NCBI RefSeq assembly: GCF_000633935.1
Contig: NZ_KK214996.1
Coordinates: forward strand, 297,729 to 361,728
Origin: Ectothiorhodospira haloalkaliphila ATCC 51935
GTDB taxonomy: Bacteria; Pseudomonadota; Gammaproteobacteria; Ectothiorhodospirales; Ectothiorhodospiraceae
Direction of reading: 5' to 3'
DNA length: 64,000 nt
The notes under the pieces are model-generated. The model had not been told where the DNA came from, searched no databases, and saw nothing but the letters and a program-made list of their open reading frames with translations. Made by a program: the position numbers and the translations under genes. Below, in pieces: positions 1,827 through 61,193 of the stretch. The stretch's first letter is position 1, and every line of letters begins with the position of its first letter.

Positions 1827-1867
1827 CCCTCACCCCAACCCCCCTCCCGCCAGCGAGAGAGGGGCTC
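1827..1867. repeat. Short intergenic inverted repeat (CCCTC...GAGGG family), degenerate copy
   Basis: This contains CCCTCACCCCAACC followed by CCCTCCCGC and then GCGAGAGAGGGG, so an imperfect hairpin of a C-rich and a G-rich arm. The same unit recurs in this window at 11891, 13269, 16942, 21855, 47438 and, as a variant, 63511. It sits in the gap between the queA start and tRNA-Leu. Confidence 0.7.
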
Positions 1868-11106: not shown

Positions 11107-11217
11107 GATGGACTGCCGAATCCAGAAGAAAACGCTAAACTATACGGCTTGTAACCCATGAACCCTCGATTCTCGCGGTGGCGCCCGGCGCGCCGCGATC
11201 AGACTGGATTGATACTG

Positions 11218-11607
11218 ATGACCACCCAGCCCAGTAAGCAACTGGAAACCTTTGAAAACCCCAATAAAGCGCGTGATTATACCATTCGTATCCAGGTGCC
11301 GGAGTTCACTTGCCTGTGTCCCAAGACGGGTCAGCCAGACTTTGCTGAACTGCGTCTGGAGTATGTGCCCGATGAGCGCTGTGTGGAACTCAAATCGCTC
11401 AAGCTGTATGTGTGGTCCTTCCGGGACGAAGGTGCCTTTCACGAGGCGGTGACCAACCGCATCCTGGAGGATCTGGTGAAGGCGACTGCGCCCCGGTTCA
11501 TGCGGCTGACGGCGGAGTTCAATGTGCGCGGCGGGGTATACACCACGGTGGTGGTGGAGCACCGGGACCCGCAGTGGGTGGCGCCTGAAGAGGTGAAACT
11601 GCCCTGA
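11218..11607 (+). CDS. queF: NADPH-dependent 7-cyano-7-deazaguanine reductase QueF
   Basis: Reduces preQ0 to preQ1, the base that Tgt inserts into tRNA. The start at 11218 ([12 protein letters not shown]) gives 129 residues; an in-frame ATG at 11158 would add 20 residues ([10 protein letters not shown]) without family resemblance. The catalytic cysteine lies in [14 protein letters not shown] and the NADPH-binding signature [16 protein letters not shown] follows. Its length puts it in the short, unimodular QueF group rather than the ~280-residue E. coli type. It faces away from smc. Confidence 0.95.
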
Positions 11608-11623: not shown

Positions 11624-11739
11624 CCGGGGTTTGACTGTGGGGGGCACACTCCCCCGGGCTTGACTTCCGGGGACACAATCACCTGGATTTAACTTCGAGG
11701 CAACACTCTCCCGGGTTCAGCTTCGGAGGGTAGCCTCTT
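11624..11739. repeat. Degenerate ~29-bp tandem repeat, four units
   Basis: Units begin at about 11624, 11654, 11682 and 11711, giving spacings of 30, 28 and 29 bases. Each begins CCGGG or similar, is followed by T-rich TTGACTTC-like sequence, then a G-run and CACAcTC. Units are roughly 60-75% alike. No conserved spacers or flanking cas genes exist, so it is not a CRISPR array. Confidence 0.65.
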
Positions 11740-11852
11740 CGCGGGCGGCGGGTTCCTTACAGCGGGACGCCGTGAATACATCCCTGTAGGCTTGACCGCC
11801 GCTTCCATGCGGCGAACACCCGCTTACAGGAACCCGCCGCCCACGAAGAGGC
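11733..11852. repeat. Nested palindromic element, copy 1
   Basis: Arms 11733-11766 and 11819-11852 (34 bases each) pair with four mismatches, three of them in one internal loop where both arms contain TTACAG. Inside lies a conserved core (GGGACGCCGTGAA then ACATCC and TGTAGGCT) and an inner hairpin CGCCGC-N6-GCGGCG. The core and the innermost ~17 bases of each arm match copy 2 at 61015, but the outer ~16 bases of the arms do not. Confidence 0.85.
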
Positions 11853-11890: not shown

Positions 11891-11931
11891 GAGCCCCTCT
11901 CCCCGCCGGGGAGAGGGGTTGGGGTGAGGGG
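11891..11931. repeat. Short intergenic inverted repeat (CCCCTCTCCCC...GGGGAGAGGGG)
   Basis: A near-perfect hairpin CCCCTCTCCCC-GCC-GGGGAGAGGGG is followed by TTGGGGTGAGGGG. This is the same family as the units at 16942, 21855 and 47438. Confidence 0.85.
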
Positions 11932-11966: not shown

Positions 11967-13244
11967 ATGGCACACACCTATTGTCATCTCGGCATCGACA
12001 TGGGCACCTCGGGGTGTCGCGGGGTGGCCGTCTCGCCTGATGGGGCGATCCTGGCCAGGCATCATGTCGCGCTGGAAAACCCTGTTCGCCAAGGGCCGGC
12101 CGTGGAACAGGATCCGGTCTTGTGGTGGAACGCCCTGCAACAAGTGCTTGACGAACTCGCGCGACGCTTGCCCTGCCCGCCCAACACCCTGGCGATTGAT
12201 GGCACATCAGCCACCCTGCTACTGACCGATACCGAGGGCCGCCCTCTCGGGCCTGCAATGATGTACAACGACGCCCGGGCACGCCCGCAGGCCCACCGCA
12301 TCGCCGCAGTGGCACCCAGTGACAGCGGTGCCCATGGGGCCAGTTCCAGCCTGGCCAAGCTCCTGTGGTGGCTGGAATACCACCCGGATCAGGCCGGGCG
12401 GGCCGCCCATGCCCTGCATCAAGCCGACTGGCTTGCCGGGTGCCTGACCGGCCGGTTTGGCCTGAGCGATGAGAACAACTGCCTGAAGCTGGGCTTCGAC
12501 CCGGTTGAACGCGCCTGGCCAGCATGGCTGAACGCGATGGACTTACCGACCCATCTTCTCCCTCAGGTCTCACCGCCCGGCACCCCCCTGGCCCCCATCC
12601 GGCCCGACCTGGCCCGGCAACTGGGACTGCCGCGTGACCTTCAGATCATCGCCGGTACCACCGACAGCATCGCGGCCTTCCTGGCCACCGGCGCCGATCG
12701 CCCCGGCGAGGCGGTCACCTCCCTGGGCAGCACCCTGGCCATCAAGCTGCTCTCCGATCACCCCATCTTTGCCCCCCAATACGGGATCTACAGTCATCGT
12801 CTGCACGACCGCTGGCTGGTGGGCGGGGCCTCCAACAGCGGCGGGGCAGTGCTGCGTCAGCACTTTACCGATAAAGAGATGGCCGGGATGAAGCCACAAC
12901 TGCGGCCCGAACAGCCCACCGGCCTGGACTATTACCCCCTGCCTGGCTTAGGCGAGCGCTTTCCCGTCTGTGATCCGGCCATGGCGCCGAAGATCTCGCC
13001 CCGACCGGAGGATGATGTGATTTTCTTTCAGGGACTGCTGGAGGGGATCGCGACCATTGAGGCGCAGGGATATGCGCTTTTGAGGGAGTTGGGGGCGCCG
13101 GCTCTGACCTCCATCCGCACCGTGGGCGGCGGCGCAGGGAATCCGGCCTGGACCCGGATTCGGGAGGCCCGGTGTGGTGTGCCCATGGTGGCGGCGAGGG
13201 AGACGGAAGCCGCGTACGGGGCGGCGTTACTGGGGGTAGGCTGA
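11967..13244 (+). CDS. Short FGGY-family carbohydrate kinase, ribulose/xylulose-kinase-like
   Basis: ATP-dependent sugar kinase of the FGGY fold. It has 425 residues, against about 480-500 for classic xylulokinases. The N-terminal phosphate-binding loop GIDMGTSGCRGVAVSPDG, the catalytic-loop region AIDGTSATLLLTD, and the C-terminal ATP-site pieces GTTDSIAAFLATG, SLGSTLAIKLLS, GGASNSGGAVLRQ and VGGGAGNPAWTRIR are visible. Length and motif layout resemble the D-ribulose kinases described in cyanobacteria and plants (SePSK/AtXK-1 type). That substrate is an inference, though salvage of free ribulose would suit a Calvin-cycle organism. It converges with the ABC exporter, whose stop lies 30 bases away. 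Confidence 0.82.
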   Translation: MAHTYCHLGIDMGTSGCRGVAVSPDGAILARHHVALENPVRQGPAVEQDPVLWWNALQQVLDELARRLPCPPNTLAIDGTSATLLLTDTEGRPLGPAMMYNDARARPQAHRIAAVAPSDSGAHGASSSLAKLLWWLEYHPDQAGRAAHALHQADWLAGCLTGRFGLSDENNCLKLGFDPVERAWPAWLNAMDLPTHLLPQVSPPGTPLAPIRPDLARQLGLPRDLQIIAGTTDSIAAFLATGADRPGEAVTSLGSTLAIKLLSDHPIFAPQYGIYSHRLHDRWLVGGASNSGGAVLRQHFTDKEMAGMKPQLRPEQPTGLDYYPLPGLGERFPVCDPAMAPKISPRPEDDVIFFQGLLEGIATIEAQGYALLRELGAPALTSIRTVGGGAGNPAWTRIREARCGVPMVAARETEAAYGAALLGVG

Positions 13245-13268: not shown

Positions 13269-13294
13269 GCCCCTCACCCCAACCCCTCTCCCCG
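13269..13294. repeat. Half copy of the short inverted repeat, overlapping the ABC exporter 3' end
   Basis: GCCCCTCACCCCAACC followed by CCTCTCCCC matches one arm plus tail of the repeat family. The tail contains the exporter's stop codon, so its final residues (RGEGLG) are repeat-encoded. Confidence 0.65.
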
Positions 13295-21854: not shown

Positions 21855-21895
21855 GAGCCCCTCTCCCGCTGGCGGGAGAGGGGTTGGGGTGAGGG
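21855..21895. repeat. Short intergenic inverted repeat
   Basis: CCCCTCTCCCGC-TG-GCGGGAGAGGGG followed by TTGGGGTGAGGG, between prfB and the flgL stop. It may end the long flagellar transcript, though there is no clear T-run on the minus side. Confidence 0.85.
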
Positions 21896-47437: not shown

Positions 47438-47479
47438 GAGCCCCTCTCCCGCTTGCGGGAGAGGGGTTGGGGTGAGGGG
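47438..47479. repeat. Short intergenic inverted repeat
   Basis: CCCCTCTCCCGC-TT-GCGGGAGAGGGG then TTGGGGTGAGGGGC, starting directly after the stop of the 884-residue protein and lying between it and the convergent gdhA end. Confidence 0.85.
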
Positions 47480-60941: not shown

Positions 60942-60978
60942 AATCCCCCGTGGGAGCGGCCCTCGGCCGCGAATGGCT
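60942..60978. repeat. REP-like unit, left
   Basis: 37 bases, AATCCCCCGTGGGAGCGGCC and onward, with internal hairpin GCGGCC-CTC-GGCCGC and the tail GAATGGCT. It is a near-identical inverted partner of 61157-61193. The GTGGGAGCGGCC start resembles REP sequences of pseudomonads. Confidence 0.82.
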
Positions 60979-61014: not shown

Positions 61015-61131
61015 GGACCTCGGGGGGACCGGGTTCCTTACAGCGGGACGCCGTGAACACATCCATGTAGGCTCTGCAGCCGCTTCCCGCGGCTGAAGCC
61101 CGCTTACAGGAACCCGCTCCCCCCGAGGTCC
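61015..61131. repeat. Nested palindromic element, copy 2
   Basis: Arms 61015-61047 and 61099-61131 (33 bases each) pair with four mismatches, again with the TTACAG internal loop. The core (GGGACGCCGTGAA, ACATCC, TGTAGGCT) matches copy 1 at 11733. The outer arms (GGACCTCGGGGGG...) and the inner hairpin (CAGCCGC-N5-GCGGCTG) differ from copy 1 but remain self-complementary. Confidence 0.85.
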
Positions 61132-61156
61132 GGACAGTCCGGAGTCTTTTTCGAAA

Positions 61157-61193
61157 AGCCATTCGCGGCCAAGGGCCGCTCCCACAGGGGGTT
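61157..61193. repeat. REP-like unit, right (inverted)
   Basis: AGCCATTCGCGGCC and onward, internal hairpin GCGGCC-AAG-GGCCGC, ending CCCACAGGGGGTT. It is the inverted partner of 60942-60978 with about three mismatches. Confidence 0.82.

What the first reader, a model, noticed from the sequence alone, without database searches (positions are those of the whole stretch)
11733..11852. Nested palindromic element with compensating stem changes (copy 1 versus 61015-61131)
Two copies share a core and inner arm sequence, but the outer ~16 bases of the arms and the inner hairpin stem have different sequences in each copy while remaining self-complementary. Paired changes in both stems imply that structure, not sequence, is kept, either as RNA or as a DNA hairpin used in mobility. 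A single core with TTACAG internal loops on both arms recurs.
Basis: seen in the sequence. Interest (0 to 1): 0.62.

Follow-up and report, generated by a model that had tools for sequence, protein, structure and literature searches.

The report
Self-mending palindromic repeat with YPAL-type core
This is one of about forty copies, in a purple sulfur bacterium, of a hairpin-forming DNA repeat found across many gamma-proteobacteria, whose middle is nearly fixed while its long arms keep changing letters together so that they mostly still pair, probably because DNA copying re-templates one arm from the other.

Summary
Both window copies are real and structured (z -8.2, -7.3). The genome (genus Ectothiorhodospira, inferred) holds at least 39 copies; in 38 of 39 the own right arm fits better than at least 90% of the other copies' right arms. 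In 81 diverse copies 37 of 43 pairs changed on both sides; 89% of cells pair against 60% shuffled. The core is a three-way junction homologous to the enterobacterial YPAL/RU-2 repeat (Rfam Ysr224); arms are lineage-specific. A covariance model hits 79 of 369 sampled class genomes.

At 24 sites compared with two sister species I found 19 fully compensated arm changes (14 transversions; nearly half from one site) and four in-place inversions. With no G-T excess over A-C and no orientation preference relative to transcription, this fits replication template switching better than stepwise RNA selection. The near-fixed core implies a factor, not found.

No element lies beside 24 Y1-transposase loci, and 15 of 79 element-positive genomes lack Y1_Tnp hits. 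Yet 7 of 39 copies, window copy 2 included, sit inside an inverted REP pair. How copies spread, and any RNA role, remain unproven.

The parts
11733..11761 (+). copy 1, left outer arm (variable sequence, pairs with 11824-11852)
   Evidence: fold; arm pairing 27 of 28 Watson-Crick with 2 gap positions
11762..11766 (+). copy 1, closing stem GCGGG of the three-way junction (with 11819-11823)
   Evidence: the GGG/CCC pairs are standard pairs in 80-81 of 81 copies, of which GAC/GTC in 4
11767..11792 (+). copy 1, conserved hairpin 1 (GCC / GTGAA / TAC-ATCCCT-GTA / GGC)
   Evidence: same core in YPAL/RU-2
11793..11818 (+). copy 1, hairpin 2 (variable stem CGCCGC/GCGGCG, loop with TCC, basal T-A and G-C pairs)
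   Evidence: 8 of 9 pairs have both-side changes across 81 copies
11819..11823 (+). copy 1, closing stem CCCGC
11824..11852 (+). copy 1, right outer arm
61015..61042 (+). copy 2, left outer arm
61043..61103 (+). copy 2, core: closing stem, hairpin 1, hairpin 2, closing stem
61104..61131 (+). copy 2, right outer arm
60950..60973 (+). REP GTGGGAGCGGCCCTCGGCCGCGAA bracketing copy 2
   Evidence: 110 sites in the genome at up to 3 mismatches, 0 for the pattern read backwards
61162..61185 (-). inverted partner REP bracketing copy 2

Best explanation
It is an intergenic, non-coding, hairpin-forming DNA repeat of about 118 bp, a distant relative of Yersinia YPAL/RU-2 by its core. Anatomy (shown): two ~28-bp arms, a small internal loop, a closing GGG/CCC stem, then a three-way junction with a nearly fixed hairpin 1 and a variable-stem hairpin 2. 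How it persists (pattern shown, process inferred): when the palindrome is single-stranded in replication, the polymerase switches template within the hairpin or between strands; this copies one arm onto the other, so a mutation, or a whole new stretch, in one arm becomes matched in the other, and it sometimes flips the element in place. The arms thus drift in sequence yet stay largely complementary with no need for selection on an RNA. The core (inferred) stays fixed because a factor not identified here reads it, as structured DNA or as RNA. Spread (inferred): non-autonomous; partly as passenger between inverted REPs, partly by tandem and mosaic duplication. It sits mostly at 3' ends, so it is probably co-transcribed as a stable hairpin that may affect mRNA stability, as has been suggested for YPAL.
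For: Structure by covariation: 993 cells changed on both sides against 333 in shuffles, 89.1% of cells paired against 60.4% shuffled and 37.5-44.2% when partners are slid, 37 of 43 pairs. Homology of the core: a sequence profile of the 81 copies finds published RU-2 at E 1.5e-11 and none of 200 shuffles; Rfam RF02770 Ysr224 matches element copies, below its gathering score of 70 bits, best 44 bits, E 1e-8 in this genome. DNA-level renewal: in 22 orthologous comparisons 23 positions changed on both sides against 7.0 expected by permutation (highest of 2000: 14), 19 fully compensated, 14 of those transversions; without site 14, 14 against 3.4 (highest 9), 10 compensated, 6 of them transversions; one-sided changes are 31 transitions and 26 transversions. 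Site 14: nine compensated changes within 13 consecutive arm positions between L026 and L250. Inversions in place at 4 of the 28 orthologous regions that still hold a core (sites 5, 7, 15, 18), at site 15 exactly the 119-bp element. Mismatches in arms of 81 copies (columns 8-24): G-T 35, A-C 66, so no G-U bias on the core strand. No orientation preference: codirectional genes 25 and 25 in other genomes, 6 and 8 here; convergent 17 against divergent 2 here, 30 against 12 elsewhere. Published precedent for arm homogenisation and spacer inversion by template switching: abstracts of PMC8604942 and PMC8794818.
Against: One-sided changes are more frequent (57) than compensated ones (19) at orthologous sites, so mismatches do persist; 9 of the 19 come from one site, and six sites were compared with two species each, so the comparisons are not independent. 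A strand asymmetry (A-C about twice G-T) would also fit weak selection for G-U on the opposite strand's RNA. At 18 orthologous same-orientation sites the core is 98.3% identical, the left arm 95.2% and the flanks 88%: the core, and to a lesser degree the arm, change more slowly than flanks, which asks for selection of some kind, though regions that had lost the core were left out of that count. No recognition factor was found. Empty sites gave no clean insertion boundary. Inversion by recombination between flanking REPs, rather than template switching, can explain sites 5, 7 and 18.
Confidence: 0.6

Rival explanations
1. Functional structured RNA (sRNA or 3'-UTR element) whose helices are kept by ordinary compensatory selection.
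For: Strong covariation in the arms, in hairpin 2 and in the upper part of hairpin 1 (its basal three pairs never vary); conserved unpaired junction letters; homologous to an annotated Yersinia sRNA, Ysr224; core and arm more conserved than flanks at orthologous sites; mostly at 3' ends.
Against: Little G-U: G-T cells 50 of 2267 in arms, 5 of 726 in hairpin 2, and A-C outnumbers G-T; compensated changes are mainly transversions; no orientation preference relative to transcription; element flipped in place at four sites.
Confidence: 0.15
2. RAYT-mobilised REP/REPIN family: the element is itself a REP-like unit moved by a Y1 transposase.
For: 7 of 39 copies lie inside inward-facing REP pairs at near-constant spacing and 10 more have a REP within 250 bp; own genome has a Y1_Tnp gene flanked by an array of a related REP (L062); copies in Stenotrophomonas, Lysobacter, Arenimonas and some unnamed MAGs form inverted pairs (27 '+ then -', 1 '++', 0 '- then +' within 500 bp); Y1_Tnp is commoner in element-positive genomes (64 of 79 against 177 of 290).
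Against: No element (E up to 1) within about 1.5 kb of 24 Y1_Tnp loci examined (all 4 own ones, 20 of 26 from six other genomes; some loci shorter at contig ends); 15 element-positive genomes have no Y1_Tnp hit, one of them 100% complete with at least 8 copies (G381); 22 of 39 own copies have no REP within 250 bp.
Confidence: 0.12
3. Arms are the target: the core inserts into pre-existing palindromes such as terminators, so each copy has different, self-complementary arms.
For: Reported for YPAL: targets span or adjoin dyad symmetry (PMC2229807, passages read); site 13 in G007 has a short palindrome matching the outer arms without the core.
Against: Arm length is constant (partners i and 124-i over 28 columns in 81 copies); arms are shared among copies of a lineage (by eye), so they travel with the core; at site 20 I see no palindrome in the two sister species (by eye).
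Confidence: 0.08
4. Ordinary MITE with terminal inverted repeats read by an IS transposase.
For: Inverted arms and dispersed copies.
Against: The arms, which would be the transposase sites, are the least conserved part, differing even within one genome; no clean target duplication seen. No search for an IS with matching ends was run.
Confidence: 0.05

Closest known systems
YPAL / RU-2 (Yersinia palindromic sequence; De Gregorio 2006 not held; sequence and properties from Delihas, PMC2759123 and PMC2229807, passages read)
   Same: Core ACGCCGTrAATACATCCATGTAGGCTCG followed by a GC-rich hairpin; closing stem and outer arms around it; intergenic; palindromic fold. Placement just downstream of genes is recalled for YPAL and found here.
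   Different: About 118 bp instead of 168; other arm sequences; closing stem GCGGG/CCCGC instead of GTAAAG/CTTTAC; no target duplication recognised here.
Rfam RF02770 Ysr224
   Same: Model matches element copies on the core strand over its full 107 positions, in this and other genera.
   Different: Scores seen are all below the gathering score (best 44 of 70 bits); the model does not show the 28-bp arm pairing.
REP / REPIN with RAYT (GTAG repeats, Di Nocera 2013, PMC3733652: abstract, two sections and passages read)
   Same: Intergenic palindromes downstream of genes; inverted pairs in some lineages; some copies nested between inverted REPs.
   Different: About 118 bp against 20-40 bp, no unpaired GTAG tag (GTAG is in a stem and becomes GGAG in many copies), not beside the Y1 transposases examined.
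Template-switch (quasipalindrome) correction (PMC8794818, PMC8604942; abstracts and outlines seen)
   Same: Multibase compensatory changes, arm homogenisation, spacer inversion.
   Different: Those works treat RNA genes and yeast coding DNA; here the signature marks a dispersed bacterial repeat family.

Membership tests
YPAL / RU-2 | core sequence | tested here: met
   nhmmer E 1.5e-11, 0 of 200 shuffles; letters compared
YPAL / RU-2 | length about 168 bp and the Yersinia arm sequence | tested here: not met
   element about 118 bp, other arms (profile match covers only columns 34-87); hence YPAL-type core, not a YPAL
YPAL / RU-2 | target duplications of 3-26 bp (PMC2229807) | tested here: inconclusive
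   orthologous sites without core show deletions or replaced stretches, no clean duplication seen by eye
YPAL / RU-2 | placed downstream of genes (recalled from the 2006 paper) | tested here: met
   convergent 17, divergent 2 here; 30 and 12 elsewhere (home-made gene calls)
YPAL / RU-2 | targets span or adjoin dyad symmetry (PMC2229807) | tested here: inconclusive
   site 13 yes, site 20 no, by eye
REP / REPIN (RAYT-associated) | 20-40 bp palindrome with unpaired GTAG-type tag | tested here: not met
   GTAG lies in hairpin 1 stem; position 22 is G instead of T in 75 of 193 copies
REP / REPIN (RAYT-associated) | copies flank a RAYT gene | tested here: not met
   0 hits at E<=1 in 24 Y1_Tnp loci
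Rfam Ysr224 | score at or above the gathering cut-off | tested here: not met
   best 44 bits of 70; 0 of 20 genomes over the cut-off
integron attC | conserved ends with variable middle (recalled) | tested here: not met
   here the middle is conserved and the ends vary; attC motifs themselves were not searched
ERIC / RU-1 | 127-bp ERIC consensus | not tested
   no comparison run

The most novel reading that the evidence does not exclude
YPAL is only the enterobacterial branch of a gamma-proteobacterial superfamily of structured DNA elements, defined by a nearly invariant three-way-junction core that a conserved host or mobile factor recognises, and flanked by 'free' palindromic arms that are perpetually rewritten by template switching. 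The arms would then act as a replication-coupled hairpin handle whose letters do not matter, and the family would be a natural, genome-wide recorder of template-switch mutation and in-place inversion in bacteria.
Probability: 0.45. Interest if true: 0.75.

Novelty: new variant of a known kind. Interest (0 to 1): 0.55.

Why it matters
Double covariation is usually read as proof of a functional RNA. Here a very large covariation signal comes with features that point to DNA copying, so such families could mislead RNA-discovery pipelines; Ysr224 is listed among the 20 most prevalent sRNA annotations in one survey (PMC9029176, passages read). It also offers dozens of natural replicates per genome in which template-switch correction and inversion can be dated against flanks, and it asks what keeps the junction core fixed across about a quarter of the sampled genera of the class (71 of 271).

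Tried and rejected
RAYT as owner: Y1_Tnp loci in own and six other genomes (one of the six had none), no element nearby; class-wide comparison, 15 element-positive genomes without Y1_Tnp hit (the two lists were compared by eye; genome size as a confounder was not tested). Mobile replicons: no blastn match in 72,556 plasmid and 50,697 phage records (sequence-level only, so diverged copies would be missed). Terminator: no intrinsic terminator pattern at copy 1, one short hairpin with a T run at the right edge of copy 2 (61129-61143; 0.2 expected), so not general. Target palindrome, IS-type MITE and attC: see rivals and membership. Rfam at gathering threshold: only three tRNAs in the window; laxer searches gave Ysr224 plus miRNA-family hits that look like chance fits to GC-rich hairpins. 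Stenotrophomonas strain comparison for empty sites: the four sites that I read out are mosaics of several palindromes and gave no clean boundary. Literature: exact core strings gave only hits in unrelated papers; searches for YPAL, Ysr224 and RF02770 and for REP and template-switch terms showed, in the listings and passages that I saw, no description of this core outside enterobacteria; the 2006 YPAL paper is not in the library and most subscription journals are missing, so this is weak evidence of absence.

Rows dropped: one search kept copies with up to 3 substitutions in a fixed core pattern and no N, so core invariance in alignment A1 is partly imposed by the search; A1 used 81 of the 112 non-redundant references; the pair count was run on 100 of the 114 loci; searches used 22 of 28 orthologous regions with a core (left out: site 3 in both genomes, tandem; site 6 in both, truncated or recombined; site 19, second hit; site 21); the divergence figures used the 18 same-orientation ones. 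In one search copies inside a predicted ORF (5 own, 24 other) and copies with a neighbour missing (1 own, 18 other) are not in the counts given. output was cut in the middle. Searches scored only 8-9 candidates a genome, so copy numbers there are lower bounds.

Full report
WHAT IS THERE. The window holds two copies of a palindromic repeat, 11733-11852 and 61015-61131. Each folds into one long hairpin much more stable than shuffles. Copy 1 lies between two rightward ORFs (11158-11607, which looks like QueF, and 11967-13244, which looks like an FGGY-type sugar kinase; both labels recalled, not searched). The organism is probably an Ectothiorhodospira: contigs of two relatives counted as the same genus have the lengths of named contigs of E. 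shaposhnikovii and E. mobilis (539,039 and 101,328 bases).

COPIES. The genome holds at least 39. Left arms are 47% identical on average and the first 31 nt of the core 94%; yet own arms pair with a mean score of 42.2 against 15.7 for arms taken from different copies and 7.2 for shuffled ones, and the own right arm beats every other right arm in 27 of 39 copies, at least 90% of them in 38. Copies occur singly, in tandem (L037, L039, spacing 151-159 bp) and as inverted pairs: among 100 loci, 27 '+ then -' pairs within 500 bp, one '++', no '- then +'; by the titles, 20 of the 27 are in Stenotrophomonas (with [Pseudomonas] hibiscicola), Lysobacter, Lysobacteraceae or Arenimonas and 7 in MAGs without such a name, and some loci are the same place in two strains. 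S. maltophilia D457 and SJTL3 have 116 and 135 model hits among 150 candidates scored each.

STRUCTURE. An alignment of 81 diverse copies gives a constant architecture: 28 arm pairs (column i with 124-i), hairpin 1 (GCC/GGC plus TNC/GNA round a TCC loop, with GTGAA unpaired on one side) and hairpin 2. On this structure 89.1% of 3479 cells pair, against 60.4% after shuffling and 37.5-44.2% when partners are slid by one to three columns; 993 cells differ on both sides from the commonest pair (333 shuffled); the covariation score is 0.653 (0.160 shuffled); the count of further pair types is no more than weakly raised (128 against 122.9; 41 of 500 shuffles reach it). The structure was read from this same alignment, so the slid control leans its way; shuffles ignore relatedness. 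Arm quality varies: the per-copy Watson-Crick fraction in columns 8-24 has a median of 0.88 and a lowest value of 0.12, so a minority of copies have decayed arms.

WHAT IT IS RELATED TO. A laxer Rfam scan gave one repeated match on the core strand, Ysr224 (in L105 two hits on the two strands fit its inverted pair). Ysr224's core is that of the Yersinia repeat YPAL, also called RU-2; the sequence printed by Delihas (PMC2759123, passages read) carries the core on its other strand, and a sequence profile of the 81 copies finds it with E 1.5e-11 over columns 34-87 while 200 shuffles give nothing. Arms, length and closing stem differ. With a covariance model, 79 of 369 genomes sampled from the class and 71 of 271 genera have the element; in a phylum sample 34 of 398, of which 32 belong to this class and two are single weak hits. 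Plasmid and phage collections had no match by distant blastn.

HOW THE ARMS STAY COMPLEMENTARY. For 24 own copies I located the orthologous places in two sister species and fetched 45 regions. By my count over regions have a core in the same orientation, 4 have it inverted, and 17 have no core by the pattern (several of these hold remnants). [quoted passage not shown] 4 more changed on both sides without full pairing; 57 changed on one side only. Coincident changes number 23 against 7.0 by permutation (highest of 2000: 14); without site 14, 14 against 3.4 (highest 9). Site 14 is the clearest: nine compensated changes lie within 13 consecutive arm positions. In this genome a stretch of about 70 bp separates what reads as the old left arm (still similar to G007's) from the core, another left arm stands next to the core, and the right arm complements that one; in G007 both arms carry the other sequence. 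Which state is older is my reading. Sites 5, 7, 15 and 18 show the element inverted in place, at site 15 exactly 119 bp. Arm homogenisation and spacer inversion together are what the literature attributes to polymerase template switching at inverted repeats (abstracts of PMC8604942 and PMC8794818). At sites 5, 7 and 18 REPs lie on both sides in at least one of the compared species and the inverted tract (202-244 bp) reaches them or nearly so, so recombination between REPs is an alternative there.

WHY NOT SIMPLY AN RNA. Helices kept by RNA pairing should tolerate G-U. In the arms (columns 8-24) there are 35 G-T and 66 A-C cells among 1376; the asymmetry, if anything, favours the strand opposite to the core and Ysr224. 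Gene context shows 3'-end bias but no orientation preference: own genome, convergent 17, codirectional 6 (core strand) and 8, divergent 2; other loci, convergent 30, codirectional 25 and 25, divergent 12 (my own ORF caller; copies set aside are listed under Tried and rejected). This does not exclude effects on mRNA stability, which have been suggested for YPAL (review PMC2229807, passages read).

WHAT KEEPS THE CORE AND WHAT SPREADS IT. At 18 orthologous same-orientation sites the 58-nt core is 98.3% identical, the left arm 95.2% and flanks 88% (gap positions not counted), although regions that lost the core are left out by construction. Something therefore probably recognises the core; I did not find what. 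Y1_Tnp genes are not beside it in 24 loci and are not found in 15 of 79 element-positive genomes, though they are commoner in element-positive genomes (64 of 79 against 177 of 290). In this genome 7 of 39 copies, window copy 2 among them, are framed by inward-facing REPs at near-constant distance (27-31 bp on the core's 3' side, 43-53 on its 5' side), 10 more have a REP within 250 bp on at least one side, and 22 have none; 110 such REPs exist in the genome, and one of its four Y1_Tnp genes is flanked by an array of a related REP (L062). Copies may thus have travelled inside REPINs; this is inference.

VERDICT. The finding is real, larger than described, and belongs to a known kind (YPAL-type palindromic repeats) in a form and range that my searches did not find described. 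The most likely keeper of the paired changes is DNA copying rather than RNA selection; confidence 0.6.

Noticed in passing
window 60950-60973 (+) and 61162-61185 (-); about 110 sites in the genome: A REP family GTGGGAGCGGCCCTCGGCCGCGAA; two inward-facing copies frame element copy 2. A variant, GTGGGAGCGGGCCTTGCCCGCGAA, forms an array of about 122-bp period on both sides of the Y1_Tnp gene in L062.
   Followed up: partly
window 1827-1848 (-), 11909-11930 (+), 13271-13292 (-), 21874-21895 (+), 47457-47478 (+): Another dispersed palindrome, GGGAGAGGGGTTGGGGTGAGGG with a CCCCTCTCCC partner, one copy directly right of element copy 1; 4 of 39 elements have one within 300 bp.
   Followed up: no
L037 (two copies 151 bp apart), L039 (three copies 159 bp apart), G583:C1:94410-95448: Tandem arrays of the element with constant period (about 227 bp in G583).
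   Followed up: no
Stenotrophomonas, Lysobacter and Arenimonas loci, e.g. L105:4660-5019, L084:1265-1672: Element often as an inverted pair in one fixed arrangement, set in mosaics with other short palindromes.
   Followed up: partly
alignment A1, columns 32-34 and 90-92: Four copies (L089, L101, L103, L107) have the closing stem GAC/GTC in place of GGG/CCC, compensated.
   Followed up: no
L247 (G007), site 13: The orthologous place holds a short palindrome resembling the outer arms without the core; deletion of the core or an original palindromic target cannot be told apart.
   Followed up: no
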